Shown: piece after piece, positions 21,078-61,455 of the stretch | How positions within the stretch are numbered: position 1 is the first letter of the stretch | Layout: the number at the start of each line of letters is the position of its first letter | Assembly (NCBI RefSeq): GCF_008831285.2 | Contig: NC_045145.1 | Coordinates: 10,168,802 to 10,232,801, forward strand | Length of the DNA: 64,000 bases | Reading direction: 5' to 3' | DNA from: Nymphaea colorata | Lineage: Eukaryota; Streptophyta; Magnoliopsida; Nymphaeales; Nymphaeaceae | Program-made: the position numbers and the translations under genes | The notes under the pieces: model-generated | Databases searched by the model: none | What the model saw: the letters and a program-made list of their open reading frames with translations, nothing else | Told to the model about the DNA's origin: nothing

Positions 21078-21200
21078 CTACTTTTTCAACAAGTATGTAC
21101 CATCTCGCAGCTCTAATTTTTCCACTGATACAAGGCCTGATAAGAAGTTCTGTAACTGATGAATTGATTTGTCGTAAGGATGATCACCCATGCAAAACAT
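21078..21200 (-). CDS. APC2: APC2 terminal exon
   Basis: 123 bases including the stop TAG (21078-21080), after acceptor TTGCAG|ATGTTT. It reads MFCMGDHPYDKSIHQLQNFL, then SGLVSVEKLELRDGTYLLKK. The C-terminal GTYLLKK end matches the family, so the true stop is reached. Confidence 0.95.
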   Translation of the reverse strand: MFCMGDHPYDKSIHQLQNFLSGLVSVEKLELRDGTYLLKK

Positions 21201-30200: not shown

Positions 30201-33200
30201 TGGCAGCCCAAGCTCCTAAGTGGTCGAGTGTGGCATGCAAGGTTTGACCGGCCTGCTTGGGCTTGGTCCCAGCACTTGTAGGTGCCCAGCTAAGCTCGCC
30301 TCATTGTGTTGATCCGTCCCCAGTGGCTGGGCATTGACCGGGCTAGTTCTGGGTTCAGTCCTGGTTGAGCGTGTGAGGTCAGAAGTGAGCTGGTAGCATC
30401 TTGGACCTTGTTGGGCATGGTGTTGACTAGATCAGGCTGGTCTAAGCGGATGAGCTTGGGTACTATCCTGGTCCGATTTCAGCTAGGGTTGAGAACGAGC
30501 GCAAGCCAGCCAGCATCCTAGTGCGGGGTTCGGGGTTCGGGGTTCTAGCCACACCAGTGATGGGCCCGGGCGGGGCTTGGACCTAGGCTAGGCTGGGTGC
30601 ACCACATAGAGACTTCTTGGGTCCGGTGAGGTCACCCATGCCCAACCTTGGCCAAAGAAGCCGCAGCCCGGTTAGGGTCTGTGGCCATTGTCCAGCCAGA
30701 AAGGACGTGCAATGAGTGGCCCCCATAGCAAGGGCAGGTGCATCATAGGCTGCACGGACAAGGTCAGCCAACAAAGCCAAACCGGTCTCAGATAGGATGG
30801 CCGGGCCAAGTTCGGCCAGCAAGACCAAGCCTTGTGGGGCAAGGCGGGGCCTGTTTCAGCCATGATTATCAGCCACAGCCCGGCCACGATGGCCAACCAT
30901 CGCTCAGCTTCGATTGCCAACTATGGCTTAGCCACGCTGGTCGGCCATATCACGGCCGAAATGGTCGGGCTAGACTCAGCCACTATATCCAGCTAGGGTA
31001 GGGCCATAGTGGTTAGGCCTGATCCAGCCAAATGCAGCCAGCAAGAGCACGGATCCAGCCAAATGCAGCCAGCAAGAGCACGGCTAGAGTTTCGTGGCCT
31101 AGCTTGGTACCAGTTGTTTGGCTCCGACCAGACTTGATCTTCGAGAGTACGAGAAGGGCTTGGCCCTTGCTTGCGGCACTAGAGTGAATAGCAGTTGTCC
31201 AACTGGAAGATGACTCATGGTGAGGGTGATGAGGGAAAAAGACGGCCCAACGTGGCCAAGCATCAAGGAGTGATTCCGGATGCGGTTTTTATTGGGACCA
31301 CATCACCAACCAGCTTGGTCAAAAAATATATATATATTTTATCCATGTTGAGCTCAACTTCAACGGGAAGATGCTAAATACAGACAAATAATAAATGAAA
31401 CAAAGTTGAAAAGTTAAAATATATATAGATTATACATATCTTATTATAGACAAATATATAAATGTGTGTTTGTGTGTGTGTGTATATATACATATATAAT
31501 TATATATATATATATACAAAAATGTAGCATATAGACAAGTATTTTTTACATGTAATCTAATACAAAGGAGAAGATTCTTACCTCATATACTGTCATTTCC
31601 TTCTTAACTTGCTCTTCCACTAAGGACATGGAGCTCTCTCCTTCCTCCTCAACAGCCAGAAGTCCACCAAATCTGCCCGTAGTAAGACTATTCTTGTTTG
31701 CATCACCCAAATCTTCAATGAGCGTCAAAATATTGTCATTGTTCCCACTTCCTAATGATTCGGCAATTAATCCCTGTGCAACAAAGCAAACATGCAATAG
31801 TGATAAGGGTTGAAAAATGATAAATTGAAATTTACCAGAAACAATGATATTGACAGAAAATACAAGCACTGGCAGCAAAAAAGTGAAATTTCTAAAAGCA
31901 TCAACATTGAAAGTGAATTTAAGTTAAAAAACAAAATGAAAAATATATGGCAGTAATTAAGGTCCTAAAAAGTGAGGCATCATCTCGTGCCATGATCTTC
32001 ATGAAAGGAGTTGAAAAGAGCTGGCATATATGACCATGGACGCAATCCTCAAACATGTCATAAATTAACAATGTCAGGTAGTATTTGATATAATATATTA
32101 TTGACAAAGCAGCCACTGTCCAAAACCAAAAAGCTCAAAAAGAAGTCCGAAGATCCTATATAGATAATTCTATTGCACTCCATGCACACTTTAAGTGTCA
32201 TTATCAAACTTGTGGAATAAACAAATGTAGGTCTATCCCAAGTAGTCCAGAAACTATTACAAAGTCAAGATGAGCCCAAAAAAGGTTTCCTATCTACGCA
32301 GAAATAACTCAAAAAGAATTTAGACCTTTGTGCAAACGATCGAAGGATTGGAGAATAAGGATTGTCCTCTAGAAACATGTTTATTAGTTAGATTAGAAGC
32401 ACAAACGAAGAGAAATTATTACAGACAAGGATAATAACTAGCAAAAGAGGATAATTTGGCATACCTTACTTATCCAAAAACTTATTGCTCTATTAAGAAC
32501 ATCTACAGGCACTCCAATTGAATCAGAAAGTTTTCCTGAGGTCCAGCTGAAATTTGGTAATATAAGTATTATAAGAAACATCAACTTAAATGAATGAGAA
32601 ATTCACGAATATAACAAAGCTATAATTCAATTAATTTAGAAGATATGGAACACACAACACATCACGATCTTCACTTTTTACCTTGTTTGTTCTTGAAATT
32701 TCAAGATAACAACCGCACATAGTGGAGATACTTTAAACTCAAGGGATCGATCTTCAAATTCCAACTCTAACTAAATAAGCAAAATAAAGAATTACAAAAA
32801 AATGAGATAACTTTGACAACCAAATTAGACTTTCAGTTTTGCCAATCAAATACCAGAAATCTTGAATATTCATAAATGACTATTCAAACCTTCACAACAC
32901 CAAGATTTTTCTTCCAATTTAGCTTGCGAGGGGTTTTGAGTTCATGAAATCTCTGTGCATAATCTTTAACCAACTGATCTATTGAACCAGGCAGACAGAG
33001 AGATTCTAACTCCACCTGCACCATTTGTATTCAGGCTTAAACCATGCAACTGAAGCTAAGAAAAAACAACACAAGTAAATTGCCAAAAAACTTTAAGAAA
33101 CACAAGTGCTGTAATCATGATTTCCATGGTTCTACAAAAAGAGTGACAAGCACAAGCAAGCAAAATGATCCCCTCTCCTTCTAGGAATCCAAAAAATTGC

Positions 33201-36200
33201 AAGTACCTCATTCATGTGATCTAGGTCAATGTCTTAAAACAGAAAAAGGAACCTTCCAACATTTTATACAGGAAATCAATTTGATGAGGCACATAGCTAT
33301 CATTCTAATGCAGGTACCAAAGGCACTCTCCACACCCAATCCCATATGTAGAAATAAGCAACGGAAGAGAGGAAAAGAGAAGAAACACACGATATACGTG
33401 GAAAACCTCAAGAAGAGGTGAAAAACCACGGAGAAGCTCTAACTTAGGGGCAAAACCGCAACCCTAGGAGAGAGAAAATTATATTCCACTAAATCAACAA
33501 CACAACACTAAGTGGGATTATAAGGGGGAAACCCGCCTAGGGTACCGAGCCACTCTCGGTTCCCATGCCCATGGGACCGGGTCCATATCCAGACCCGGTT
33601 CCTTTACACAAGATATTCTAACACTCCCCCTCAAGCTTGGCATAAATGTCAAACATGCCAAGCTTGCTCACATTTTTTTCAAATTGAGATGTACATAAGG
33701 CTTTGGTTAAAACATCTGCAATTTGATCTTCAGACTTCATATAAGGCAGGATCAACTCCTTTGAATCAATGCGTTCTCGTATGAAATGGCGATTAATCTC
33801 CACGTGTTTGGTTCTGTCATGCAGGACGGGATTATTTGCAAGGTTAATCGCAGATTTGTTGTCGCAGTACATCTTCATCTTCTCTTCCATTTCAATTCCA
33901 ATATCTGCTAGAAGGATCTTCAACCATAGCATTTCTGTAACTCCCATAGCAACCGCCCTGTATTCAGCCTCAGCACTGGATCTAGAACAAACTTCCTGCC
34001 TTTTACTCCTCCATACAACCAGGTTACCCCCTAGAAAGATGCAGTACCCTGTAGTAGACCTCCTAGTATCAGTGCACCCTGCCCAATCTGCGTCAGAGTA
34101 TCCTTCAATATTAAGTTGGTCTTGCTGAGTATACAGTAATCCTTTCCCCGGGTCATTTTTCAGATACCCCAACACTCTTTCTGCACTCTTTCAGTGACAA
34201 TCAGTAGGAACACGCATAAACTGACTCAACACATTCACAGCATAGGTGATATCAGGGCGAGTGAGGGTAAGATAGATGAGCTAACAACCAATCTCTGATA
34301 CCGACCTTTTCCTTCCTCATCCAAGATGTTGCCAGTCTTGATGTTTATCTTCGTACCATACTCCATTGGAGTTAGAGAGGGCCTACATCCAAGTTTACAT
34401 GTCTCCTTTAAGAGATCCAGAGTGTACTTCCTTTGGCTCATAACAAGCCTTGTCTCTGATCGAGCAATCTCTATCCCCAGAAAGTACCTTAGTTTACCCA
34501 AATCTTTCAGATCAAATTCAGCAGCTAACCTCTCCTTCATCTTCTTTTTCTCTTCTTCATCGTCACCTGTGACAATCATATCATCAACGTATACAAGAAG
34601 GAGACTCACCAAACCATTTCTCTGCTTAATGAATAGGGTGTGATCACCATTTCCCTGTTTGTATCCATTAGTCTTCATCACTATCCTTAGTCTTTCAAAC
34701 CAAGCTCTAGGAGACTGCTTTAGTCCATACAAGGCTTTCTTGAGATGACAACATTTTCCGCTTTGGGCATATCCAGGGGGCATGCTCATATAGACCTCTT
34801 CTTCTAGACAGCCGTTCAAGAATGCATTCTTGACATCAAGCTGGTCCATGCCCCACTTCTTTTGCACAGCAAGTGCTAAGATGACTCTCACGGTTTTCAG
34901 TTTGGCAACAGGGGCAAAAGTTTCAAGATAGTCAATACCATATTTCTGACTGAACCCCTTTGCAACAAGGCGAGCCTTATACCTTTCCACAGTACCATCA
35001 GGTTTGTACTTCACACTAAACACCCACTTGGAACCAACTAAATGAGTGTGCTTGGGGATATTAACAACTTCCTACGTGCTGTTCTTTGCCAAGGCATTCA
35101 TCTCCTCTGTCATGGCCTGTAGCCATTTAGGATCCTCTCTGGCATCTTCCACACACCTGGGGATCACAGACTTAGACAAGGATGTAATAAAGCATTTGTA
35201 ATTCTTACTAAGTTTCGCATAAGAGACAAATCTCTGAATAGGGTGAGAAGTACATGACCTGGTTCCCTTGCGCAGGGCTATGGGAAGCTCTTCATCTATT
35301 GGACTTGGGTCATCCGGGGAACTCACAGGATTGGGATTGGTTATATCAACATCTTCAACCACATCTGTCTTCTTTCTGATGTACACCTGGCCGAACATAT
35401 GATCACGGGTTGTGGGCTGATCATCCACAGAGTTCCCTTGCACAGGGCTGTCGCTATCACTTCTGACTGTCTCTGTCACACTGTGGCTATCACTTCTGAC
35501 TGTCTCTGTCACACTGTGGCTGACCTTGTACTCTAAAAAATCCATAAACTGAACCAGCTGGTCTGAGGAATACTCTTCCACATTTTTCCCTATACACTCC
35601 CCCTGAAGAGGATTCACAGAAAAATACGCCTCATGCTCATGAAAGGTAACATCCCGAGAGACATAAATTTTGGAGGTAGTAGGGTCAAGACACTTATATC
35701 CCTTCTGAGTTGGAGAATACCCCAAGAAGACAGCTTTGACGGACCGAGGATCAAGTTTCTTAAGGGTTGGACTATGGTCATGAACAAAGCAAGTACACCC
35801 AAACACTCGAGGAGTAAGAGGCCAAGGGTTATGAATGGGCCTAAGAACAGAGTAGGGAGAGCGACCATTCAACACACGAGTAGGCATACGGTTAATCAGA
35901 TGGGCACTAGTGAGAAGAGCATCACCCCAGTAGCGCTTAGGAACATGCCTATGGAACATAATGGCACAGGTGACTTCTAATAAATGGCGATTTTTACGTT
36001 CGGCCACGCCATTTTGAAGAGGTGTGTAACTACAGGATGTCTCATGAATAATACCCTTGCTCCTCAAGAAATCATCTATAGACTGGGAGACATACTCACG
36101 AGCATTATCGGTGCGGAAAGCTTGAACAGAGGTCTGAAATTGAGTCTCAACAAATGCAACAAAATTTTTGACAATGATGGGAACTTCACTACGTTCTCTC

Positions 36201-39200
36201 AACAGGTACACGAACGTACAACGGGAGTAGTCATCAATAAGAGTCATGAAATAATGAAAACCACGACAAGTGGGTACTCCCGAAGGACCCCAAACATCAG
36301 AGTGAACCAAAGCAAACGGATGAGTGGTTTTATTGAGAGAAATAGGGTACGAAGCCCTGACATGTTTAGCCAACTGGCAAACTTCACATGAGAAAGAATC
36401 AATAGAAACAGAAGTAAAAAGCCTTGGAAACAACTTCTTGATCAACTGAAAAGGGAGATGCCCAAGACGCTCGTGCCATCGCATAATGGTAGATCTGTCT
36501 TCCATGCCTGACAACCGTCCACTAGTGGCTGAGATCAAGGCAGACACAACTTGCACGGGCAGTCTGTAGAGTCCATCAATAACCGAACCAATCCCAATCT
36601 TCTTCCCCGTCAATAAGTCCTGCAGGGAACAATGATCAGCAGAAAAGATTAGATTACAATTGAGTTCTCTGGTAATACTGCTGACAGATAACAAGTTCAC
36701 AGGAATATTGGGAACATAGAGAGCATTATGAAGATGATATTTATTCAACAAGGACAAACTCCCTTTTCCAACCACAGAAATAGAAGACCCGTCAGCCATA
36801 GACACGCGTTGCTGCCCTGAGGACAATTGGTATTCTTGAAACAGCTTAGGATTCCCTGTCATATGATGCGTAGCCCCACTGTCAACAATCCAATCACCAA
36901 GTGAGGGATTTCCTTGATCGCTTGTGGCTACAAGAGCTTGAGCTAATTTAGCCCCTTCGGACGTGGAAGTCTCCTCTTGCGTAGTAGACAGCCGACTGAT
37001 ATAAGCTTGTAATTCCTTGATTTGATCGGAGGAAAGTTTTGATTTTTCAACAGTTGAGGAACTACCCTGACTAGAGTCAGGAACAGAAGAACCCTGCCGA
37101 CTAGAAGGAGGGCGACCACGAACAAGTCTCTTCTTAGGATGAATATCCCAACAAAAATCCACAGAATGCCCCAACTTGTTACAATGACTACAACGTCGAA
37201 CAGAACGCTGTCCACTCCCAGAGGCACGGCTAGCAAACGCTGAGGGGGAACTCCCATGGATGGAGTCAATATGCATAACTTGACGACGTTGTTCCTCAGA
37301 TTCCACCCGGGCATACACCTCCTCAATCCCGGGAATCTCGTCACAATTGAGAATTTGGCTCCTAATGGATTCAAATTCATCGCGTAAGCCTCCAAGGAAA
37401 ATAAAAGTCCAGTCCATCCATTCTTTGTCCCAGTACAGGGCATGATCAGAACCACAATGTCAATCATCATTCACATGGTAGTCTAGTTCCTCCCATTTAG
37501 TCTTCAGGGCTGCAAAGAAAGAAGCTACAGACAAGTCACCCTGTTTAAGAGAGTAGATGCTACGTTTGATTTGGTACGCACGCAATACTCTCTTCTTACG
37601 GCCATACATCCGCGCAAGCACAGTCCACATGTCGTATGCAGTCGATTTACGCAAGATCAGAGGTTGAATATCTGCGGAAACAGAACTGATGATCCATACT
37701 TTCACCTGACTATCTTCCAACGCCCAAGTCGCCCATCGCGGATCCGTTTTTGAAGGTGCAGGTTTCTCCCAAGTAATATAGGGCAGGCGACCACGACTGG
37801 TTATTCCGATTTCTAGGGCAGCAGACCAAGAGAGATAGTTGTCCTTGTTCAGCCGGATGGAGGTGACTTGAACAGGCAAGTTCTCCCTCTTGGTATTGCT
37901 GCCCGTATCTAGGGCATCATCAATCTTGGGAGTCATCGCTTCGGCCATCACAATCACCAAAGAGAGGCAATACCCAGCACCAGAGACGACAGACAAGAGG
38001 TAGCGGAGGCGGAAGAGTTACTGGCGGTGATAGCAGTGACGGCGGCGACGGCGACGACGCAGGAAAGGCGACGGCAGCAGCAATGACGGCAGCGACGGCG
38101 ACGATGACGCCAGCGACGACGACGATGACGCCAGCGACGCAGGAAAGGCGACGGCGCTGAAAAGAACGCCGGCGACGGTGCTGGAACTGGCGGCCACGCT
38201 GGAACTAGCGGCGGCGGCGGGAGACGAGCAGCGGCAGAAACGATGGAAACGCACGATCACAGAGCAAAACCCACACACGGTAGCTCTGATACCATGTAGA
38301 AATATGCAACGGAAGAGAGGAAAAGAGAAGAAACACACGATATACGTGGAAAACCTCAACAAGAGGTGAAAAACCACGGAGAAACTCTAACTTAGGGGCA
38401 AAACTACAACCCTAGGAGAGAAAATTATATTCCACTAAATCAACAACACAACACTAAGTGGGATTATAAGGGGGAAACCCGCCTAGGGTACCGAGCCACT
38501 CTCGGTTCCCGTGCCCATGGGACCGGGTCCATATCCAGACCCGCTTCCCTTACACAAGATATTCTAACACCATACAACCTCAAAGCAATGACACATATGT
38601 TTCACAAACAGCCTGATGCTTCAAGCATGACAGGCAAATACAAGACACCATTGTCACAACATCTCAGCATTTTACCCAATGTTGTAAAAAGCGTATCGTA
38701 AGTCGTATCGGTCTGGCTTTAAGATACGCTGTATTGTAAAATATCGTAACGTATCGTAACCGTATCGTAATTTTTTTTTAAATAATCAGAAAAATATAAT
38801 AAATTCTCAAAAAATAATAAAAAAATCAATCGTAACCGTATCGTACGTATTGTAACCATATTGTACGTGTCGTAACTGTATCGTAGTCGTATCGTAGTTG
38901 TATCGTACAATACAAGTGCTGTATCGTATCACATTTTTAAAACGCGACGATACGTATCGTACGATACATACAACATTGGGATTAGGTATGTTTTTGCACA
39001 ACAATGTCCAACACTAATAAATTTTACCAGTGAGGTTTTTCCCAATTTCCTTTTGTTTCTCATACGAAAATCCCATAAATTCAAAAATTTAAAAAAATAT
39101 ATACACTTAAGAAACCAGAAAAGAATAATGAAATTATGAGTTTTTACTAATTTTCTTACAAAAAGAATTTGAAAACACCCATAACTGCGTTATAGTGAAA

Positions 39201-42200
39201 AGCCCTAGGTGTGCATAGGCAGTGGACCTTTGAAACATGATCAGGTGTGGCCTTTGAAACATGACTAGGTGTGGCCTGGCAGCGCATAGACAGAACCAAG
39301 GGCAAGGAAAAACAGTAAAAGAAAGAAATGAAGAAGAAAAAAACAGAGAAAGAGGAAAATAGAGAAGAAGAATAAGAAGAAGAAGAAAGAAAAGAGAAAG
39401 TAGAAAGAGAAAAATTTGTCTTAAAAAAAATCTTCATTTCTTATATTTTTTCTCCTTTTTATATGCATGTACAGTCATGTTATAACAAGGCATCCAATAT
39501 GAAGGAACTCCAACGTTTACATAATTCAACAAGATTTCCTTGTCTAAAAAAGCTATCATACAAGGCGCACTCAAGGGCCCTTCACACAAAAAAAAATTCA
39601 AACAGAGAATGAGAAGAAAACAAATCTTTCACTAAAATGGCTTCACAAGCCATACAATTACGAGAGAGCTATGTCACATAGGTACGGGTACGGGTGCCGG
39701 TGCGGGTACGGACCATTTTTAAAAAACTTGGGTGCGGAGGTACAGCCGTACACACACATGCACATACATATATAGAAGTTAAAATGAAGAAAAAAGAGGG
39801 AAGTGGGACATTAAAATGAGGGTTTCGAAAATTTTAACGTTAAAATGGTTTAAGTTAAAATGTAAAAATCATTAACATTAAAATTGGACAAATTTGAACT
39901 CAGTCAACATTGACCAAATCTGAAAAAGGTCAAAAATGACCTTGCGTGCGTTGACCGCACCCGGTACGGTCAACACAGTACCCTGTCGTACCCAGGCCCA
40001 TACCCGTACCCGTGTCGTACATGTACCGTACGGTGACAGAGCGAGAGAGTAACTAAGTAAAACAAATGGGAAGGAGAATTGTTCCAAAATCTTTGGGCCA
40101 AGGTTGCTTTAACACTGGTCTATCTTTCTATAGAATGGCCTCAAAACTATCAAATAAAATTCCTTTTGCTGAACTCTTCAATTATGTACTGAGTTGACCA
40201 AAGCTAGAAGCCTAGACGTTTTAGGTGTAAATACTATGTTTAAAATGAAAAATGAGATAAGTTGCCCTCGAATGTTTCAGGAACTTTTGTTGAACAGTTA
40301 GAAACCCAAAAGGGACACAAGTATGATGATGTTAAAAATTACAAGTCATGTATGTTGCAAAAATATTTTTTTTCTGGACAAAGCAAGTGGATTTGGAAGA
40401 TGCAAAGCTTAAAATGAATTCAGTAACTATATTTTCCTATTTTAATTACTTCCTAGCTATGACAATAGTAATTGTAATGATGTTGAAGTTGATAATCCTG
40501 ATGAAGTTAACAAAAATGTAGAAATGAATATTGAGGGCAGAACACCGTTGAACCAATTGTTTGTAGTCTAATGTCAAAGGCTCACAGGCTTGTGCCTAAT
40601 GCTAGCTGGTTTTAAACAACCTAACGTTTGAAAATGCCTAGAACATGCCCTAAGACACCTAGACGCACAACAGCCTAGGCTTCTTTCATTGACAAATTTG
40701 TACTTCACTTCTTTCTTATTATTTTTCTTTTTCTTCTTTTGAAACAATATTTTTTCATTAATTTTTGTACATTTTTGTTGTTGCATGTAGTTTTGCATTA
40801 TAAGTACATGCGGGTATGTGCATTTGCACTTGTAGGTACCATTACAATTCATATACTACTTTACTTTGATCATTTATGTTATTTTAAGTTTCTAGCTCTC
40901 ACACATATATGTATGTATCGTCAACTTAGTACTTTTTCTTGTTTACTAGAATTATATGAGAAAACAAGTTCACAGCAAGAAACGTTAATATGAACTATGA
41001 TTATATTGAAGATTTATGTTCCCCTTTTTAAGTAGGTTAGAAATTCTAGTTTTCTTTTAGCATTACAATTTTAGAAACTAGAATTAGAGATTTAGTAGTT
41101 AGCATTTAGGAAATGGTAAAGCTTTTGCAAATCCATAACTTTGAAAAGCATTTATATTTGTTTGTAAGCTTTTTTTGAGCTATATAACATGTATATTTAG
41201 TTGTTCAACTTCATTAAATTTCATCTTTTAAGCTTTTTATTATGTTTATTATCATGTTATGTGTGTTGTACTTGTTTTATTATTATAAGTTGATAGTTAT
41301 AAGTTTCCCATTGAGAAACACTTCAGTTCCATCATTAATTTTAACAATTAATATTTGCATTTCATTGGCTTTCACTTGAGTATGGCTCAATTAATGTGCA
41401 AGTCCTGCCGAAACTCTACGTTCATCTAAGTGCGTAGGCTATCTCCTATGAAACACGGATGTGGCTGGCAGACTAGCGTGTCCATGTCGACTCGGCCCGA
41501 CACGGCATGGACACACTAGCTCACCGCGTCTGTTCGTTCGCTGGACACGGTCAACGCTGACCGCGTAGGTTACTCGCCCTTGACTTTGTTGCTTTCCCCT
41601 CCGCCTTGCCCCCTTCTCCTCCTTCCTCCAGTTTCCCACCTTGTCCCCTTTGCTCCTGTTCAGCCCCAGCTACCTTCCCTCCCTTTCGCCGCAGCTTCCT
41701 TCACTGGACACAGAGCATCGTCCTCACCTGCAGCATCACCAGACATAGATCCTTGTCAGCATCATGTAACGCTCCTGTTCCAAATGTCATTCCTACCTTC
41801 TGCCCCTGCTTTACTCCTTACACTGTTCCATTCAACCGACTGCGTTGTGCTCCATCCCAACGACAGGTGTTGCAGCTTCTTCCTGTTAGCGTATGGGGAT
41901 CGGGTCTGAACAGACCCGATCCATTCTCCTTATATCCACACGCCTAAAGCTACTAGGCGGTGGCTCTCTTGTAATTTTTTATCCTTTTATGTACAAATCT
42001 GTTGTACCCTATTAGGGTTATTCTTTAATTAAAGATTAAGGAACGCAGGGCTAAGTTAAGCCGGCTGCTCCCTTTCCTCCATCGTCTTCTTTCATCCTCT
42101 CTTCTCAACATATCTGTTTTGCATACGGAGAGACGAGTACTTTGTGAAGATTCTTACATGGTATCAGAGCCAGGTTGCATCGTCCTCCGGTGAGTGATTT

Positions 42201-45200
42201 CAGTTTGATGTGATTAGCCCTAATCTGCCCTAAATTCTTTCTTTTCTGGCGTGATCATCCCTCTTTTCAGTTTCTGCCCTAAATCTTGCGTGATTTGCCC
42301 TAATTGATTTGCCCTAATCGTTGTGCCCTAATCTTCTCATCGTTTTGCCCTAATTTCTGTCGTTGCCCTAAATCAATTATGGATCAGCCGACCCCCTCTC
42401 TTCTATCTTCCAGCTTTCTCTCCCAACTTATTTCACAAAAGCTGAATCATAGTAACTATTTGACTTGGAAACGTCAAATAGTCCCTTTTATTAAAAGTCA
42501 TAGACTCTACGGGCATATCGATGGGACCACTCCAGCACCTCCTATGTATATTGACCGTGAAGTGAAGAAAACCGTAGTGGGAGATCAAGCTGCTGGGGCT
42601 GCGGCTATGAGTGAAATCAGATTTGAATATGAAACCATTACTGAAAATAATCCTGAGTATGAAGCTTGGCTGGCTCACGACCAGTCTCTTGTTGCCTATA
42701 TTACTTCTACTTTGTCAGAGGAAGTATTAGGAGGTATTGATGATGATTTAACAGCCCTAGAGTTGTGGTCTACCCTTGCCACCACGTATTCTCAAGTATC
42801 CGAAGCACGTTTTCTGCAGTTAAGAAGGCAATTTCAGGACATCAAGCGTGGGATGCGTACTGTTTTGGAATATTTGAATGAAATTAAAAGTGTAAGTGAT
42901 CAACTTGCTGCCATTGGACATCCCGTCAGCGACAAGGACAAAGTGCAACAAGCCTTGAGTGGACTGGGAACAGATTTTGATATTTTTTGCACAGCCTTGG
43001 AAGTCCTACCTATTCTTCCATCTTTCGAAGATCTCAAGGCTAAGTTATTCCAACACGAAGCTAGTCGTGTTCAGCGACAGAATTTGATTCCTTCCAACAG
43101 TCACAATGTATTGATCACAGGGACACATGCATTGCAAGGGAATCGCACTCGTACTTGGATTCCTCAGGCAGGAATGGGAAGAGGGATTCTCCCAACACCA
43201 CAGGGCATGAATACTACATCTGCCACATCTAGAAGGGTTCCGACTTGTTTCTATTGCAACAAGAGGGGGCATGTAAAGTCAGAATGTTGGCACAACCCAC
43301 AGAACAAAAATAATCAGATTAGACGTGAGAACAAGGCAGCAGCAGGGTCAGCTTCATCATCATCTGGATCTAATGTTTCAGCAGACGTACAACAACTCCT
43401 CATGACAGCCCTGTCTAAGCTTCATTTGAAACAAAACGAGCAAGGAGAATGGTATGTGGACTCTGGAGCAGCAGCCCATGTTACTGGTGACGCAGGTAAT
43501 CTCTCTAGTGCTCTCCCTTATTTAGATAAAGGCTCAGTTGTCACGGGAGATGGTTCCCATCACACAATATCACACATTGGAAATGTACAAATTTCTATGG
43601 GCTCTTCTTCGATTCCATTAAAGAATGTTCTTGTTGTTCCAAGTGTCCAGAAAAATATTATTTCAGTGTCCAAGCTTATTGATGATACTCAATCCTCTGT
43701 TGAATTCACACCCTCTTCTGTTTATGTCAAGGATGCTCGAACCAAGAAGACATTCGCTGAGGGCACTCGCAAAGGAGATATGTATGTCCTTGAAGGAGCT
43801 CCACAGATGTCAAAATCTCACCCTTCCGATTCATGTTCTCCAAGTCATAGTGAAGTCAATGTCACAGAGTATAATAAACCATCCATTTGGCATGGTCGGT
43901 TAGCTCATTGTAGTCAATCTTTTGTTCGAAGTCTTGTTGCAGACGGGCTCTTAGCTAAGTCCAGTCTGAGTTCTGTCAGTGAGTCCAGCATGTGCTCGAG
44001 TTGTCATATCTGTAAGAGCCATGCCCTTCCTTTTCAATTAATAAATAAAAGAGCTCCAAAGGTTTTTGACACCATATATTCTGATGTTTGGGGGCCTGCT
44101 CCAGTTCCTTCTTCTTCTGGGAGTAGATACTATGTCATTTTTGTTGACTCATATTCCCGATATACTTGGATCCATTTCATGAAACACAAATCAGAAGTTT
44201 TTCGCCTATTCACTCAATTTCATGCCTTAGTTCAAAATAAATATTCCAGTAATATTGTGCATTTTCAATGTGATGGTGGTGGTGAATTTATTTCTAATGA
44301 ATTTACTGAGTACTTACTAGATAATGGGATCACTAGACAAATTTCATGTCCGCATACACCTCAGCAAAACGGAATTGCTGAAAGGAAACATAGGCATATT
44401 GTTGAAAGTGCACTTAGCATGATGCATGAAACAGACTTACCTATGACATTGTGGACCGAGGCTTTCCATACGGCTGTACATGTTATAAATCGATTGCCAT
44501 TGGCTTTGCTTGATGGAAAATCACCATTTTTTCTTTTACACCAAGAGCAGCCACGTTATGAGGAGTTGCGCGTTTTTGGATGTGTGTGCTATGTGCATGT
44601 TGATGTTTCCTTGCGAAACAAATTTCAAGATCGTGCTGTTTTATGTAGATTTATAGGGTATGCAGAAAATTACAAGGGTTATAGGTGTTACAATCCTAAA
44701 ACTGGACGTGTACATATTTCACGGCATGTTGTATTTGATGAGAACAGGTTACAGGATCCCAAGGCTACTTCTGTGACACTCAAGGACAAAAATGAAGTTT
44801 ATGATACTTGGCTTCATGCTGAAATCTTAAGACAAGGGGCAGCAATGTTGACTGAGCACAATGAGCAAGTTGTTAATGAGCCCGAGACATCTGTAAGTAG
44901 TTCCTTGAGCAGCACTACTTCCTTGGACAGCATGCCTTCATCTTCTCAGCCCAGTGAGCCACCTATGCATAATCGGTTCTCAGGCCTGGTGTATTCTAGG
45001 CGATCAGTTCCTACTGCAGTTCCACGCCAATCACAACGCGTGCGACATCCTATTGATAGATGGGTGAGCTATAACAGTTTTTCTTTGGATTTTCAGCTGT
45101 TTATGACAGAAGTCAGCAAAAAGGTGGAACCAACATCTTATCACAATGCGAGTAAGGAAAAATGTTGGGTTGAAGCTATGAATGAGGAAATGGCAGCCTT

Positions 45201-48200
45201 GCATGAATGTCAGACTTGGCAGATTGTCCCTCGTCCAGCTGATAAGAATGTTGTGGGATCCAAATGGGTTTATAAACTGAAATATAAACCAGATGGTAGC
45301 ATTGATCGGTATAAAGCACGACTTGTGGCGCGCGGTTTCACTCAGCAATATGGGGAAGATTATGATGAGACATTCAGTCCAGTCATCAAGATGGGAACAA
45401 TCCGTGTCATTATTTCTCTTGCAGTCTCGTATGGATGGCCTCTCTATCAGTTAGATGTCAAAAATGCTTTTCTTCATGGAATTCTTAAGGAAGAGGTATA
45501 CATGGAGCAACCTCCCGGCTACACTACTCATGATTCTCAAAAATGGGTTTGCAAATTACACAAGTCTCTATATGGGTTGAAGCAAGCTTCTAGGTCATGG
45601 TTTGATCGTTTTTCTCATCACATACAACAAATTGGTTTTCTCCGAAGCTCTCTCGATCACTCTTTGTTTATCTATCGCACTGGAGAAGCTACCACCTGGT
45701 TACTTATCTATGTTGATGATATTGTTATAACTGGGAATTCTTCTTCACATATATCTTATGTTAAAGGTATGTTGAAGCAAGAGTTCAAGATGAAGGATCT
45801 GGGAGAATTACGATATTTTTTGGGTGTCGAACTTGACAGGACAAATGATAGTTTGACTCTTACACAGCACAAGTATACCCTTGATGTTTTGGATAGGGCA
45901 GGTATGACTAATTGCAAACCCATCACTACCCCCAGTGTTCTGAATACTAAATTGACTGCATCTGATGGAACTGCTGCATATTCCAATCCCACATTCTATC
46001 GCAGCATTGTTGGTATGTTACAATACCTTACCTTTACTCGCCCAGACATAGTATATGCTGTAAATCAGATTTCTCAGTTCATGCATGCACCCACTGAAGG
46101 ACATATGGATGCTGCTAAGCGGATCCTACGGTATCTCAAAGCTACTCTTGGAGATGGACTAGTCTACACCAAATGTTCCAATGTTTCTCTTGGACATAGC
46201 ATATATACATATACTGATGCCGACTGGGCAGGCGATCCCGATGACCGACGATCAGTTTCAGGTTTCTGTCTCTTTCTTGATTCTAATCTCATTTGTTGGA
46301 GCAGTAAGAAGCAGCGTGCTGTTGCACGATCTAGCACTGAGGCAGAATATAGAGCAATGGCTGCAGGGACGGCTGAAGCGTCATGGTTACGTCATTTACT
46401 TGGAGAGCTCAATCTTCCTATTGTTCGGTCATCATTACTATGTGACAATCAAAGTGCGATAAAAATTGCTTTCAATCCCATTTTGCATAATCGCACCAAA
46501 CATATAGAGATTGATCAACATTTCATTCGACAGAAGGTTGAAGAAGCCGAGATCTTGCCTACTTATATATCTACCAATGAACAGATAGCTGATCTTTTTA
46601 CCAAAGGTCTCACAGGGCAGCATTTTTGGGATTTGAAGAACAAGTTGTGCATGATCAAATCTCATGCACAACTTGAGGGGAGCTGTTAGCGTATGGGGAT
46701 CGGGTCTGAACAGACCCGATCCATTCTCCTTATATCCACACGCCTAAAGCTACTAGGCGGTGGCTCTCTTGTAATTTTTTATCCTTTTATGTACAAATCT
46801 GTTGTACCCTATTAGGGTTATTCTTTAATTAAAGATTAAGGAACGCAGGGCTAAGTTAAGCCGGCTGCTCCCTTTCCTCCATCGTCTTCTTTCATCCTCT
46901 CTTCTCAACATATCTGTTTTGCATACGGAGAGACGAGTACTTTGTGAAGATTCTTACACTTCCAGCGTCCAGTAAAACCCCAAACTCCTTACTGCCTTCG
47001 CGCCGATCCTACTCCTTACGCTCCACTGTTCCATTCAGCCCAGCTGTTACATCCTCCGGCAATAGGTGTTGCAGCTTCTTCGAAAGGCAGGTAACCCACG
47101 GCTCCTACTCTTCACTACTGTCCACCCACCAGACTTGTTCATATTCATGTTTCCTATTCATTTCTCACCTTTTAGATATAATGGCTGACAAGGGAAAGGC
47201 AATTTCAAGTGCTTCTATGTTAATAAGTTCTACCAGTAGTGTCAATCTTGATTCAAGTGAAACAATAGATCAGGCTCAACCACTTTGGAAACTTATATCA
47301 AAAGGAGAAAAAACTCCCGATGGTGGAAGCAACACAGGATTCAAACGTAAGCTCTGCAATGGCTGATTCACTGGTTCATATACACGTGTTAAAGCACACT
47401 TCTTACACATTTGTGCCCAAGGAGTCAGATCAAGCCCAAAAGGTGATGAAGCTACATTGAGAGAATTGAAAAAAGAACAGGAGGCAGCTGAATTGAAGAA
47501 AAATTTAGGTAAATCAAATGAACTTTTTGTTCCTTTGACTATTGAACAAAGTGTTGATATGTGGAAGAAAAGAAAATTGGGTTTGGAAGGCAACAAAACA
47601 ACAGAAGAATCACTCAGAAATATGAGTAGAGCAGAAATGGATAAAAAAAATAGCTAGATTCTTTTATGCAAGTTCACTTCCATTTACTTTAGCCAGAAGT
47701 CCTTGTTAGAAAGATATAGTTACATCGTTGGCTAATTGCAATCTAGCTGGTTATGTGCCTCCAAGATCAAACAAATTGAGAACATTACTTCTAGCAGAAG
47801 AGAAAGCAACGGTTGAGAACTTATTAGAAATGAGAAAATTTGCATGGAATGAACATGGCAATGTTATCACTGCCGTATCGTATCGTGTATCGGTCGGGCC
47901 GACCTATACACCGTATGTAAATGTATCGTAACATATCATAAAATTAATTTTTTAATTTGTAAAAAATATTAAAAAATAAAAAAAAATCTAAAATATAAAA
48001 AAAAAATCCGAAAAAACTATTAAAAATCAGAAAAATTCAAGAAAAATGTATTTGAAGGAACATTCATCATTCATGTATATGAATTATGAAGTATGAACTA
48101 TGAAGTATGAAGTATGCATATGAACAACACATTCCAAAATAAGAAATCAAACATTCAAAAATCAAAATAACATACTAAGCAGCCTAAGAGTATTCAATTA

Positions 48201-51200
48201 CATCACAATTCATAAGTTCAGAAGTCAAAACTCAAAACATATTGACATAGTTTTCAAAACTCAAAACAAAAAGCCTCATCAATCGTCATCTGCATCATCA
48301 TCTTCATTCTTCATCATCATCTTCATTTTCTTCATTAAGTGCTTCTTTTATCCCCTCTGTTGCAAATGGAATGTCACCAACATTCCATTGCTCCCCCCCA
48401 GCCTCTCCTTCTTCAATAATCTCAGTTGTTCCTTCAACGTTCAAAAAATCAAGATCGTCCTCATCAAGTATTGCAGATGGTTCTTCTTCAACCCAAGAAT
48501 CTAATATATCAAAATGGTCAATGAAGATAGGATCATATTGAGTGTGATGCTTCCTCGTAGATGTTGTTTCTTGTTGCCTAAGAAGAGAAAAATTTAACAA
48601 ATTGTTAGAAATTAAAATATATATTAGAATTTGCTATTTTGTAGAACAAAATACAAATGTTTACCTTTGTCTCAACTTCATATTATAACGAACATAAACA
48701 AGGTCATTCAACCTGTTATGTTCTAGCCTATTCCTCTTCTTACTATGGATGTGTTGAAATACACTCCAATTTCTTTCACATCCAGTTGCACTACATGTTT
48801 GGCTGAGGATTCTAATTGCAAGCTTCCTTAATTCTGGGCAATCAGGCCCAAACCTTTCCCACCACAAATCTAATAACAGATGGAAAGTAAAAATGAGATA
48901 GAATACAAATATGAGAAGGTAGAATAGAAGCTAAACAACAAAAAGTATAAAGTCTCTTTTTCTAATACCTGGATGCATAGTTGTCCTGCATCGAACTGCT
49001 GTGTCTCTCGCCATGGTACCAGAAGCCGTATCATATTTGTTGATCGACATATGGATAGCGTCTTGTTCTTGGCGATCACTTACTAATACGTCAATACAAT
49101 CCAACATGCCATACTCAACCTCTCTGTCCTTCTTAAAAGTGGGAAGATATCTAATAGTAGGATTTAGGTAGTAGGTTGCTGCATGAAGTGAGCGATGAAG
49201 TTGTCCAGACCACCTTTCATCTATAATCTTCCATATAGGCATGTACAACTTCTTTTTTCCCTTCATATTATCTCTAATGGCCTCCTTGGTTGTGTCCATA
49301 GACTCATATAAATATCCAATAGAAGGTCTATCTTCACTATCAACTAATCTGAGGACTTTCACTAGAGGTACACAAATCTTCAATAGCTGCACACATGATT
49401 CCAAAAGTCAGCATCGAAGATGGTATCCACAACTGTCGTAGCCTTTCTTTTATAGGCATGTGGATATGCAGCCCAATCATCACTTGAAAACAACTGTCAG
49501 AGAGGAGTTCTCTACTTGACTATACCCTGCATAGCCAAAACATTTGTAGCAAACCGTGTTTGTGCAGGTCGAATCAATTCAGCCCCATTTGTGAATTTCC
49601 TCATCAAATTCAAGACATAAGCGTGATTATAAATAAACTTTGTGATTTCTTGGCATCTATGAACTGTCAACTTCATATCATCTCTTTCACCTAGATCCTG
49701 AAGCATAAGATTTACACAATGAACAGCACATGGACTCCAATAAAATGTCTCATATCGTGCTGCTAACATTTCACCTGCAGCTTTATAATTTGCTGCATTA
49801 TCAGTGATAAATTGCACAACATTTTCAGGCCCAACTTCTTGTATAACTTTATCAAAAACCCCAAACAAAACATCAGCAGTCTTAGGAGTATCAGACAAAT
49901 TTTAAGAACATAGTACCAAGGGGGCAATATACAAGAAAGTTTACCAATGTTCTGTTCTTGATGTCTGTCCACCCATCTGTCATTACACTGCATGTTGTAG
50001 CTTTCCAGCTCAATTTTAGTTCATCACAATATGTCTTGACATCTCTAACTACATTGTTGAGAATTTTACCTCGCAATTTATGAAAAGAGGGCATTTTATA
50101 CCCTCGGCCTACACTAGCAATCGCATCTACTATAGGCTGAAAATGATAAGAGTTTGCTACATTGAAGGGAATGGATGCATCATAGAACCACCTTCCTATG
50201 GTTTCATCTGCTGCTTCAACAATATCTTTTGATTGCATGGCTATACGAATCTCAGGCTGAGCACCAACAGCAATATAATTGGGAAAAAAATTCTTGATCG
50301 AACCAGACATATTATTCGACCTCATAGTAGGTACTCTACCACCACCAGTACGACCATGACTCCTACCACGTCCTCGTGAAACTGAACTTGTACTTGCACC
50401 TCTTCTTTTTCTGGTTGCAGTTGCAGAAGAACCACCACCATGCATGATGCCTTTCCCTTTATATGTTCCCAAACTGACACCAACATCTCCTTCTTCAAGG
50501 TGAACATCTTCACCTTCACTTTCATCCTCTTCATGTGGGTCCCCATATCCTTCCTCTGCATCTTGCATTTCCTTTTCAATCCTATTTGCTTTCACTACAT
50601 TAAGAAGCCCCATACACTGGTGCTTTACATACGCTGGCAATGGGTTCTCTTTGGAGCCAGTGCAAGCAGCCACATCGCTGTGTGTACCAGCTATATGGTT
50701 TTTAAAGCGAGAGATCCCTCCTGATATGATTTGCTTACAATAATTGCACTTAACTCTTAACCTATCTTTGGGATTTACCCTTGTACACCACTGCCATGCA
50801 AAAACATACAAATAAATGTAGGAAATAAGAGAAATGAACGATTCAATGGAAAAAATGAGTTATTTCTTACCTTCTTGGTGTTAGAAAACAAAAAACCCTC
50901 TTCCTCCAAACTTCCCGCCGTCCCAAGGCTTCCCACAACGAGAAATAAAGCTTCTTCACTGGCAAATCTTGATGCAACTCTCCCTCCCACGTCTCTTGCA
51001 ATGTTTAGAAAGAAGAGAAGAGAGAGAGCGTCGGTTTTTAAAAAAGAATACACAAAGAAGGGGCCGTCGGGCCCCTTTTTAGTTTTTATACCGTATCGTG
51101 CGATACGGGGGTATCGCCCGTATCGTACTATACGGACCCTGTATCGTACGATACGGGCAATACGTGTACGATACGCACGCGTATCGCCAATTAATAGTGT

Positions 51201-54200
51201 GACGTATCGTTACGCTTGATACAGACGATACGTATCGTACGATACGCGTCCGTATCGTACGATACGGATAACATTGGAACATGGAGTATCTATCGTTTCT
51301 GATGGATGGACGAACGTACAAAGGCAACCATTAATAAACTTTATAGCTTATTCACTTAATGGTCCAATTTTCCTAAAGTGTGTTGATGCATTTGAGCAAT
51401 ATAAAGATGTCGAATATTGAAGTCATTGTTCACAAAAGTGATCAAAGAAGTTGGTGAACATGTAGTGCAGATTGTTGTTTAGAGAGGTAGAGAAGAAGGA
51501 GAAGAAGAAAACGTGAGGAGGAAAGAGAGTAAGGAGCAATCTACTTGTTACGTCTGCTCCCTTTCCATAATTCTTGCTTGAACCAAGTCTCTAATGTAAT
51601 GACAATCAACTTCGATATGTTTGGTCCGTTCGTGGAAAACCGGATTATTTGCTATGTAAGTGGCCGCTTTATTATCACATTGCATTTTTATAGGCAATTC
51701 TATCTGTATTCCAAGACCTTCTAGCATGGCTCTCACCCAAGTGATTTCAGTGGCAGTTTGGGCCATGGCTCGGTATTCTGACTCTGCACTTGACCGAGCA
51801 ACAACAGCTTGCTTTTTACTTCTCCAAGAAACTAAGTTACCACCAACAAAGATACAAAATCCCGTAGTGGACTTTCTATCATCAATAGAGCCTGCATAAT
51901 CTGCATCAGAATAAGCTTCTATCTGAAGTGAAAACTTCTTCTAAATAATAGACCCTTTCCTGGAGAACCTTTTAGAAATTTCAATAATAGCATAGCTGCA
52001 TCCCAATGAGCTTTTCTTGGCTTATCCATAAACTGGCTTAGTTTTCCCACAGCACAGGATATATCGAGTCTAGTAATGGTTACATATAGTAGCTTTCCAA
52101 TCGGAGACCGATATGATTTGCTATTAACAGGTTCAGATTTATCATCATATAAGTGAATACGAGAATTCATAGGAATAGATGTCGGTTTTAGTTCCAGTCA
52201 TACCTGTCTCTTGTAGCAAATCAAGAAGATATTTTATTTGGGAAAGGACTAGACCTTCTTTACTTCTTGCTACTTCTATCCCCAAGAAGTAACGTAGAGA
52301 GCCAAAATCTTTAGTAACAAAGTGTTGTTGGAGATACTTCTTTGTGTCTTGTATTTCTTGTTCACAGTCACCAGTTAAAATAATGTCATCCACATATATC
52401 ACCATAACAACCATACCTCTTGAGGTTCTTTTTATGAACAATGAATGATCTAAAGGAGATCTACGAAACTCAAACTTGGACACAATATCACACAACTTCT
52501 GAAACCATGCTCTGGGACTCTGTTTCAAACCATATATAGCCTTATTTAACAAACATACCTTGGTACATGTTAGATTTAGGGTGTCGAAGTATAACCCACG
52601 TCCAGATTGAGCAAAGGAAAGATAAGAGAGAGAGTAGGAAAAGAGAAATGAGGAAGGGAGGTAAGTATTCACATTCTCACACAACCCATTTATATAGTGA
52701 TCCTTCTACACAACTTACATGAATCTAGAATGAAACAATCACAATAATCTAGAGCCTAGAGTGAAGCAACACAATAATCTAGAGCCTAGAGTGAAGCAAC
52801 ACATTAATCTAGAGCCTAAAGTGAAGCAACACAATAACCTAGAGTCTAGAATAAAACAATTACAAAAATTACAATCATAACCCTGCCTAGATAAATGCGC
52901 TCAGACATGGTTAGACATGTTGGATCTGGATCAGATCAACATCTTATCATCCTCCCTCAAGTTGTACAATGGTTTTGCACCATGTACAACTTGCCTTTTA
53001 GAAACCAGAATCGTTGCTTCGTTAGCCCTTTTGTAAATAAGTCTGCAACTTGTTCATCTGTGCGAACATAAATAGGCTGAATCTCCTTGTCTTCCACCTT
53101 TTTGTCTAATAAAGTGTTGATCAATCTCAATGTGCTTTGTTCGACCATGTTGTATGGGATTAAAAGCAATGTTAATAGTGCTTTGATTATCGCACATTAA
53201 CATTGACGTTTTAATCTTTTCTCCAATGTCTTATAGCAAATGTCTAACCCATGTAACTTCAGCAGCGCCTGCAGCCATGCATCTGTATTCAGCTTCAGTG
53301 TTGGATCTTGCCACCGCCTTTTGCTTTCGACAACTCCAAGACACAAGATTATGTCCAATGAAAACACAAAAACCAGCAATGGACTTTCTTTGATCGGGAT
53401 CTCCATCCCAATCTGCATCTGTGAATGTCATAAGTTGATGTCCAGCAGTTATATTTTCACTCTTACCATCAACTAAGCCATCTCCTGTTGTCTCTTTTAG
53501 ATATCTTAATATTCTTTTGATAGCATCCATGTGAGTATCTCTAGGTGCATGCATAAATTGAGATACTTGATTCACAGCATATATAATATCTGGTCTAGTG
53601 AATGTAAGATATTGAAGTGCCCCAACAACACTTCGATATTGTGTAGGATCTTCATATAACTCTCCATCCTGAGCACTTAGTCTTTGATTTAGAATACTAG
53701 GAGTTCCAACAGGCTTACAATCAGACATACCTGTTTTTTTCAACAGATCCAATGTGTATTTCTGTTGTGTCAATGTGAGGCGATCATTGTGCCTATCAAT
53801 CTCCACTCCAAGAAAAAATCGTAAATCACCAAACTCTTTCATTTTGAAGTTTTGCATCATCAAAACTTTAACTTTTTCTATGTGTTTTTCTGAATTGCCT
53901 GTGATAACAATATCATCAACATATATAAGAAGTAAAGTAAATATTTTTCCTTTCGATAGATGAAAAGAGAGTGATCTAGAGGACTTCTCCGAAAATCACT
54001 TCCTTGAATCTTGCAGGAGAAACTGTCAAACCACGAGCGTGAGGCCTGTTTGAGTCCATAAATAGATTTTCTTAGTTTACAAACCCATGCATGAGAATCT
54101 CCTTCCGTATATCCTGGAGGTTGTTCCATATATACTTCCTCCCTCAAATCACCATGAAGAAAAGCATTCTTCACGTCCATTTGATGTAGTCTCCATCCAT

Positions 54201-57200
54201 ATTCAACTGCCAATGATATAATCACACGAATTGTTCCCATTTTGATCACAGGGCTGAATGTTTCATCATAATCTTCTCCATATTGTTGTGTGAAGCCTCG
54301 TGCCACCAATCTTGCCTTGTATATTTCTATACTGCCATCAGGTTTATATTTAATTTTATAAATCCATTTCGAACCTACTACATTCTTTTCTTTGGGTCTA
54401 GGAACAACTTTCTATGTCTCACATTCATGTAATGCATCTATTTCTTCATTCGTAGCCTTGATCCAATGCGACGACTTGGATGCTTCCTCAAAAGAAGTAG
54501 GTTCATCTCGTTTTATAACTTGAGACATAAAGAGTTGAAAATCTAAGGAGAAATTATCATAACTTACCCATCTATGAATCGGGTGTCGCACTCGCACAGA
54601 TCTTCTAACAGGCTGATCATAGACTTCAACGTGGGAAGAGGTCGGATTGTCATCTCTCCTTTTTTGACGAGTATAAACCTGTCCTGAAAATCGACATGAA
54701 GCATTGTTTTCTCCTTCTTTCATAAGCTGGAACAAGTTCTTTGTTTCCTTCTGTTTGTATGATATCTGAAGATCCTGTCTCATCATGTGGATGTGATTCT
54801 AGACTGCCTCCTGCAAATAACTCAGCACTTACCCAAGGATCATATGATTCCACGGGTTGAGAATTCTTAGTAGAAATGTTAAAGTTGTGTTCATCAAACA
54901 CAACATTTCTCGATACTTTGATGCGTCTGGTTGTAGGGTCATAACATCTGAAACCTTTGTATTCATCTGCATAGCCAACGAACCTACACTGCATTGCTTT
55001 GCTATGAAATTTATTTCTCAATGACGAGTCAATGTGAGCATAGCACACACATCCAAAAACCCTTAAATCGTTGTAGTTTGGATTTCGACCAAAAAGAGTG
55101 AAGGAGATTTTGAATCCAAAACTGCCATAGGCAGACGATTTATTATATGCACAACAGTGTGAAAAGCCTCCGTCCATAAAGTAATAGGAGTATTGTTATC
55201 ATGGATCATACTCATACCACTTTCCACGATGTGATGATGTTTTCGTTCAGCTACACCATTTTGTTGTGGGGTGTATGGGCATGAAATCTGTCGAGTTATC
55301 CCATTTTCTCGTAAAAAGCTAATAAAGTCATGTGAAGAATATTCTCCCCCACCATCACAATGGAAATGCACAACTTTAGACGAGAGGGGACCCATCGGGC
55401 GACGCTGGGCTTGGGCGTTGATATCGGACAGAGCGTCGTGTGCGTCGGGCGTTGAACAGAGTCAAGCAGTAACAGAAAACTCCGTGACAAATGAGTACCT
55501 CCAGACGAAGGCGAACAGCCAGGGAGCCTCGGGCGACAGCAATGGAGCACGGAGTGGCGGGCGATGATGGTCGTTGGTCAACGAGCGAAGGAACTGGCAG
55601 AGGCGACGTCGGGCGAAGGAGACACCACCATAGACTCCACCGAGAGAAGACGACAGCAGAGAAAGCGAGCAGCAGTCTCGGGCAAAGCTCGCGAAAGATG
55701 CACCGTTGGGCTGGGCACAGCAAGTTCCGTCGGGGTCCACCAGAACTTCACAGGGACCGAAAAAACACTCACCAAATAGAGTCGATGGTTCTTCGCCAAA
55801 TCTGAACAGTGATCTCAAAAACTATTTGGCTCTGATACCATGTTGAAATAGTAAAAGCGTAAAGAACAACTGATGTAACGTGGAAAACCCTCAACAAGAG
55901 GGAGAAAAAACCACGGGTGAGGAGGTCGGTGCCCACTAGCCGCCAGACACTCTCTCTCTTAATTCTTCATTAACACACAAGATTAGGGTTTACAATGGTA
56001 TAAGTATGCCCAAACCAAGACACACTGGATCGGGTCCGGACCCGGACCCAAACACCAAGATCCGTCAACATCTACTCTCGGCATCCCTCTTTTGATTATG
56101 GGCCTTCGGCTTCTTCTCCTCTGGAGGTCAGTATTACAGATTCACTTGAAGTTACCACATCTATGTAGGTAGGATGATGATATAAATATTCTAAGCACAG
56201 AAGATGACCACCTTATTGCTCTACTAAAAGGTAATGCCAGTGCACTTTTGCATATTATATCTAAGTTCGTAACAACAGAAAGACTTGGCAAGAATATGCA
56301 AATAGATCTAAAGTGGAAACTTGCCATGCAAGAAAGGATGGACGCATTGATATTCAGAGCTATGTCCTGGCCGCCAGGCAAAGCCTAGCGCCTAGGTGGG
56401 CTTAGGCGAGCCTAGGGAAAAAAAGCAACCAATTTTTTTTTATTTTTTGAGTCATGTTAATATGTCAAATTATTTTGATTAACTATTACTAGTATTTGAA
56501 ATGTAGAGAGTAGTAATATAACAAGCATAACAAACTTACACAATAAAAAATTAATTGTTGAGTTCATTGAATATGCAAAATGAATAGAAGAAGATTGACA
56601 TTACTCATTAAATGTAATCTTATACAAGAAAAAAAAAACAAATCTAATATTTAGAAAAAGGAATGCAAATCCAAAAGAAGGCTTTAAGTTTAATCCATCT
56701 GTACTTAAAGAAATACATAATATAATAAAAAATACTAACAGTACGTAATAATGTACATATGAGTACACAACAGTAACAATACATATAATTACATAATCAT
56801 ACTAACGTATACATACAACAGGTATCACAATTCTACATATTAACAGCCTAACAGTATATACATAATAATAGGTTGATGAAATACTATATAACAGGTATAA
56901 CAGACTGTACATAACAGTGTATATATATATATATATATAACATGCATTACAAAACATATAACAAGAATAATAAATTATATTGCGACACAATTTAACATAA
57001 TAGAATACACATACAAGTTTATAACAGGTATAACAAATTAACAATACAATAGCTATATGATATAAGTACATAACATAACCAGACTAATGTATACATATAA
57101 CAGTTATGAGGTATCACAATATTATATAACAGACTAAGTGGCTAACAGTATATACATATAACAGTATGCATAGAATACATAAAAATACATAACCAATACA

Positions 57201-61083: not shown

Positions 61084-61455
61084 CTACATAACACATCAGC
61101 AGGAGAATGTTCAACATTAACCTCTTAGGAAGGGAAACAAAGAAGCATCAAGCAAAGGTTTGTCAGAAAAACTCAGTATAGGAAATAACGATGTACCACC
61201 AAATGAATCTGTCATTGGTACATATGCCTGAAAGAATAAAGACACCAAAACACGATATTGACTTGCATCGCAAGTATATCTCTCACAATGAAAAAATGCA
61301 ATTAGGAAAGCTAATTAGAGGCACAAGAAAAACCATGAAAAATGCATTACAGAAAGAATGACACTACTTTTGGCATGCAATAAACCACACATAAAGTCTG
61401 AACTGCAAGCCTAGCAACAATGCAAGTAGCTCTAAATTGAAGAAAGATTGATTGT
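61084..61455. other. APC2 intron upstream of the first visible exon
   Basis: Intron sequence. A 37-codon open stretch at 61128-61238 (minus) follows a CTTTCAG acceptor-like site but runs into a stop out of frame with the exon, so I treat it as intron. The next upstream APC2 exon is beyond the window. Confidence 0.55.

What the first reader, a model, noticed from the sequence alone, without database searches (positions are those of the whole stretch)
41884..46958. Very young, apparently complete copia element
Both 275-bp LTRs look identical, the TSD CTTCC is perfect, PBS and polypurine tract are present and the 1436-codon polyprotein has every catalytic residue. All other copia copies in the window are broken, so this is a candidate active element, antisense to APC2 inside its intron.
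Basis: seen in the sequence. Interest (0 to 1): 0.75.

Follow-up and report, generated by a model that had tools for sequence, protein, structure and literature searches.

The report
Young copia retrotransposon in APC2 intron
A complete, recently inserted jumping element of an ordinary plant type sits in a large intron of a cell-division gene, and it is one of many nearly identical copies scattered through the same genome, so it records a recent burst rather than a unique active element.

Summary
Window 41884-46958 is a complete Ty1/copia element of 5,075 bp. Its two 275-bp LTRs are identical and a CTTCC target duplication flanks it. It has an 18-nt primer site matching a tRNA-Met, a polypurine tract and one open 1,436-aa gag-pol frame with every catalytic motif I looked for. 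It lies antisense in a ~26.8-kb intron of APC2, inside an older dispersed repeat; 10 of 12 other matches to that repeat run uninterrupted across the insertion point.

It is not special within its genome. With 17 fetched sister copies, 18 of 18 have perfect target duplications, 15 of 18 identical LTR pairs and 15 of 18 the full frame. The three nearest sisters differ by 3, 4 and 5 substitutions. The family amplified recently, in a genome that fits the water lily Nymphaea colorata (inferred). Nothing here shows that this copy, or the family, moves today.

One side feature is mildly unusual: a 26-bp palindrome near the LTR start, the most conserved stretch in seven subfamily LTRs compared, though its arms are broken in most of the more distant relatives. 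Its role is unknown. Verdict: real, ordinary, a new member of a known kind.

The parts
41879..41883 (.). 5' target-site duplication CTTCC
41884..42158 (+). 5' LTR, 275 bp
   Evidence: identical to 3' LTR
41897..41922 (+). 26-bp near-perfect palindrome in the 5' LTR (11-bp arms, 4-nt centre)
42159..42176 (+). primer binding site, 18 nt complementary to a tRNA-Met 3' end including CCA
42379..46689 (+). gag-pol frame, 1,436 aa plus stop
42631..43077 (+). gag domain (PF14223)
44074..44361 (+). integrase core (PF00665)
45211..45936 (+). reverse transcriptase (PF07727)
46675..46682 (+). polypurine tract GAGGGGAG
46684..46958 (+). 3' LTR, 275 bp
46697..46722 (+). same palindrome in the 3' LTR; as RNA predicted to form an 11-bp hairpin
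   Evidence: 46-nt piece, -21.1 kcal/mol
46959..46963 (.). 3' target-site duplication CTTCC
33016..59839 (-). APC2 intron (26,824 bp) holding the element on the opposite strand; ends read by eye from GT/AG next to recognisable APC2 codons
60276..60590 (-). APC2 exon-bearing frame
   Evidence: best E 4.3e-15 to solved APC2
60618..61124 (-). APC2 exon-bearing frame
   Evidence: best E 4.7e-23 to solved APC2
21090..21349 (-). APC2 C-terminal domain (PF08672), the only 2 matches found in the genome

Best explanation
A recently inserted, structurally complete Ty1/copia LTR retrotransposon. Shown: anatomy, open reading frame, clean insertion with target duplication, independent sister insertions almost identical to it. 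Inferred from the known copia cycle: an LTR-driven RNA was translated to Gag-Pol, reverse-transcribed from a tRNA-Met primer, and integrase placed the copy in an old dispersed repeat inside the APC2 intron within roughly the last few tens of thousands to at most several hundred thousand years. It is one product of a recent family-wide amplification; whether any copy moves today is unknown.
For: LTR identity, TSD, PBS, PPT, frame; domains. 18 of 18 copies with perfect and mutually different TSDs, 15 of 18 with zero LTR differences, 5 LTR substitutions in 18 x 275 bp. Nearest sisters 3, 4 and 5 substitutions over 5,075 bp. The window has 2 private substitutions. 15 of 18 frames open; pN/pS 0.43, 64 non-synonymous (4 of them stops) against 42 synonymous (binomial p 5e-5). 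Empty site: 10 of 12 non-self matches run across the junction at 74-83%.
Against: No expression, methylation or polymorphism data. LTR identity can be inflated by assembly polishing: private changes predict 12.4 LTR differences over the 18 copies against 5 seen (Poisson P 0.016), which could also mean that many private changes arose before insertion. One of the window copy's two private changes alters an amino acid in the integrase zinc-binding stretch, so full protein function is not assured. The 18 copies were picked by LTR likeness to the window copy, which favours young ones.
Confidence: 0.94

Rival explanations
1. The window copy itself is a currently active source (master) element.
For: Complete, open frame, identical LTRs; three sister copies within 3-5 substitutions.
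Against: 12 of the 17 other copies also have both identical LTRs and an open frame; the window copy has two private changes shared by none of the other 17, so none of those descends from it in its present form.
Confidence: 0.08
2. Silent young relic: integrated during a past burst and now methylated and untranscribed. This refines, rather than excludes, the best explanation.
For: C>T and G>A make up 66 of 114 private substitutions across the 18 copies, as expected if copies are cytosine-methylated; intronic TEs are usually silenced (general knowledge).
Against: The window copy has only 2 private changes, too few to tell; no methylation data.
Confidence: 0.55
3. Assembly artefact: repeat collapse or polishing made the LTRs look identical.
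For: Fewer LTR differences than private changes predict; how G000 was assembled is not stated here.
Against: No other place matches the window's flanks above 83% over the junction, and each of 18 copies has its own TSD; copies remain distinguishable by 3-54 substitutions.
Confidence: 0.04

Closest known systems
TARE1 / Ale-lineage copia of tomato (PMC3701649; abstract and outline seen)
   Same: Short-LTR copia family with recent massive amplification; the abstract reports 354 copies, 194-bp LTRs and a very low solo-LTR ratio.
   Different: TARE1 LTRs start TA; here canonical TG...CA. Ale membership of this element is not tested.
Recent Copia burst in Nymphaea minuta (PMC13254204; passages seen)
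   Same: A figure legend reports a recent burst dominated by Copia in a water lily.
   Different: Another species; no family-level match tested.

Membership tests
Ty1/copia LTR retrotransposon | Two direct LTRs with TG...CA ends and a target duplication | tested here: met
Ty1/copia LTR retrotransposon | PBS and polypurine tract next to the LTRs | tested here: met
Ty1/copia LTR retrotransposon | Polyprotein order GAG-PR-INT-RT-RH with integrase before RT | tested here: met
   (protease and RNase H by motif only)
Autonomous and currently mobile element | Transcripts, new insertions or extrachromosomal DNA | not testable with these tools
   no RNA or population data
Ale (Retrofit) lineage | RT/INT/RH phylogenetic position among reference lineages | not tested
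   no reference copia proteins held; size and short LTRs suggest it from memory only

The most novel reading that the evidence does not exclude
The 26-bp palindrome near the LTR start (GGATCGGGTCT-N4-AGACCCGATCC) is a functional cis-element, either a dimeric transcription-factor site or an RNA hairpin near the 3' end of the genomic RNA. Its retention in otherwise diverged LTRs, and duplication of a half-site in one subfamily, would help explain why several subfamilies amplified in this genome.
Probability: 0.3. Interest if true: 0.35.

Novelty: new member of a known kind. Interest (0 to 1): 0.2.

Why it matters
It documents recent copia amplification in a plant genome, probably a water lily, with an insertion in an intron of what appears to be the only APC2 gene. 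It gives clean insertion-polymorphism markers. The conserved LTR palindrome is a small, testable lead on how such families are regulated. Otherwise it is routine.

Tried and rejected
Alternative empty haplotype: the joined-flank query found no near-identical uninterrupted match, so no polymorphism is shown in this assembly.

RNA structure by covariation: on 15 sequences (the window and 14 of the 23 sister stretches located; near-duplicates and the deleted L052 left out), 1 of 21 pairs had a change on both sides, and 430 of 500 shuffles reached that. Two other measures did exceed most shuffles (cells changed on both sides 6 against 3.2, reached by 8 of 500; covariation score reached by 14 of 500), but the two-sided changes all come from one pair of a second hairpin that splits the subfamilies. 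The palindrome helix itself had no two-sided change, and 7 of its 11 pairs depart only by unpaired cells. Conserved RNA pairing is not demonstrated. The LTR start could not be located in L029, L048 and L049.

Palindrome centre AA versus TT as an inversion: it splits the 18 copies 12 to 6; one event or two adjacent changes cannot be told apart.

Lineage assignment (Ale, Tork and so on): not attempted, no reference proteins. The first regex search for middle APC2 exons gave nothing convincing; a looser one found them. (dating rates) was seen as a listing only; the rates 1.3e-8 and 7e-9 are recalled.

Full report
Observation. The two 275-bp LTRs at 41884-42158 and 46684-46958 are identical, and CTTCC flanks the element on both sides. 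The PBS begins at the base after the 5' LTR. Its first 18 nt complement a tRNA-Met 3' end with CCA; that 22-base tRNA sequence (recalled) occurs at 9 places in the genome, and ARAGORN calls a tRNA-Met at 1 of the 2 places tested. The frame from ATG 42379 to 46689 encodes 1,436 aa, and its stop lies in the 3' LTR. Pfam recognises gag, pre-integrase, integrase core, SH3 and RVT_2, and the catalytic motifs looked for are present, with integrase D-D-35-E.

Host and setting. The window is C8:10168802-10232801 of a 407.8-Mb genome in 783 contigs. Its size and the contig lengths seen fit Nymphaea colorata, reported as 409 Mb, 804 scaffolds and 14 pseudo-chromosomes (PMC7015852, passages seen). This identification is inference; I did not count the chromosome-sized contigs. 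APC2 lies on the minus strand: frames at 60618-61124 and 60276-60590 match solved APC2 chains, and PF08672 gave only 2 matches in the genome, both at window 21090-21349. The codons before 59840 and after 33015 mark an intron of 26,824 bp that holds the element in antisense (splice ends read by eye). The immediate target is an older dispersed repeat. Of 14 matches to the joined flanks, 2 are the window itself; 10 of the other 12 run across the insertion point, at 74-83% identity.

Family. The LTR search scored 40 of 379 candidates, and 36 of these form 18 pairs about 4.8 kb apart, the window included. I fetched the other 17. All 18 carry perfect 5-bp TSDs, all different. LTR pairs are identical in 15 and differ by 1, 2 and 2 in the rest. 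The sample was chosen by LTR likeness to the window copy, so it is biased towards young copies. The window differs from L001, L002 and L003 by 3, 4 and 5 substitutions and from all 17 by 3 to 47. L002 and L003 start about 12 kb apart with different TSDs, so they are separate insertions. Frames are full length in 15 of 18; L005, L013 and L016 are interrupted. Thirteen of 18, the window included, have both identical LTRs and a full frame. An RT-piece search scored 150 of 11,661 candidates; 13 rows including the window share the top score, and several relatives at 93-95% identity also keep frames of 1,439 or 1,454 aa.

Age. Zero of 275 LTR differences gives a 95% upper bound of about 0.42 million years at 1.3e-8 or 0.78 million at 7e-9 per site per year. 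The 3-substitution distance to L001 corresponds to 23,000 or 42,000 years (rates recalled). Copy-to-copy distance is not a clean clock. The 114 private changes would predict 12.4 LTR differences but 5 were seen (P 0.016), so many private changes may have arisen before insertion, or polishing removed LTR differences. Among ORF changes 64 are non-synonymous, 4 of them stops, and 42 synonymous, pN/pS 0.43, consistent with selection on proteins during recent cycles; the test (p 5e-5) ignores transition bias and shared ancestry.

A side feature. LTR positions 14-39 form GGATCGGGTCT-GAAC-AGACCCGATCC. The pattern with any four central bases occurs at 254 places in the genome, its reversed control at 0. 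Of 14 relatives whose 5' and 3' pieces were fetched, the automatic LTR pairing failed for three (L043/L029, L044/L030, L045/L031). The other 11 keep the core TCGGGTCT-N4-AGACCCGA in the 5' LTR although their LTRs are only about 66-76% identical to the window's; in the 3' LTR, L021 has one change in it. Of the failed three, L030 shows the full palindrome, L031 one with a changed right arm, and L029 could not be read. The five relatives with 1,439-aa frames (L023-L027) duplicate a half-site. Against the reading: in 12 still more distant relatives the LTR start was located in 10; only 1 of 10 (L057) keeps full 11-bp arms and 4 of 10 (L050, L053, L055, L057) keep intact inner GGGTC/GACCC arms, the rest being changed or deleted. 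Across 7 LTRs that I picked (window, L019, L025, L028, L050, L054, L057) the palindrome averages 0.85 identity to the window against 0.62 for the whole LTR, and it holds the top 20-nt windows (LTR ends were set at fixed lengths, 300 nt for three rows). In RNA it would form a stable hairpin (z -4.4 for a 46-nt piece). Covariation gives the palindrome no support as RNA, so a DNA-binding site is at least as likely. Relatedness of the subfamilies is not controlled for.

Literature. Searches covered the held open library only. Recent copia amplification is well known, for example TARE1 (PMC3701649, abstract and outline) and a recent Copia burst in Nymphaea minuta (PMC13254204, passages). A study of LTR structure discusses inverted repeats at the start of U3 (PMC3601003, passages). 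Lineage names come from PMC6317226 (passages); PMC10794571 was seen in passages. Only bore on palindromes or hairpins in copia LTRs; their listings and the passages opened did not mention this one, which is weak evidence that it is undescribed.

Noticed in passing
33346-38570: A second copia element on the minus strand with LTRs differing by 8 substitutions and 2 gap columns over 279 columns; its coding region is split into 781- and 262-aa frames.
   Followed up: partly
52954-55373: A broken relative of the same copia group on the minus strand, 68-69% identical in DNA.
   Followed up: no
48664-50859: hAT-like transposase remains on the minus strand: BED zinc finger, DUF659 and the hAT dimerisation domain.
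   Followed up: partly
41812-41882 and 47010-47081: The flanks on either side of the insertion are 73% alike over 78 columns, probably an old internal duplication of the target repeat.
   Followed up: no
42170: The PBS is polymorphic at its 12th base: L003, L005, L006 and L015 differ from the other 14 of 18 copies, although these four are not each other's nearest copies as a group by distance.
   Followed up: no
59166-59328: Tandem array of 41-bp units.
   Followed up: no
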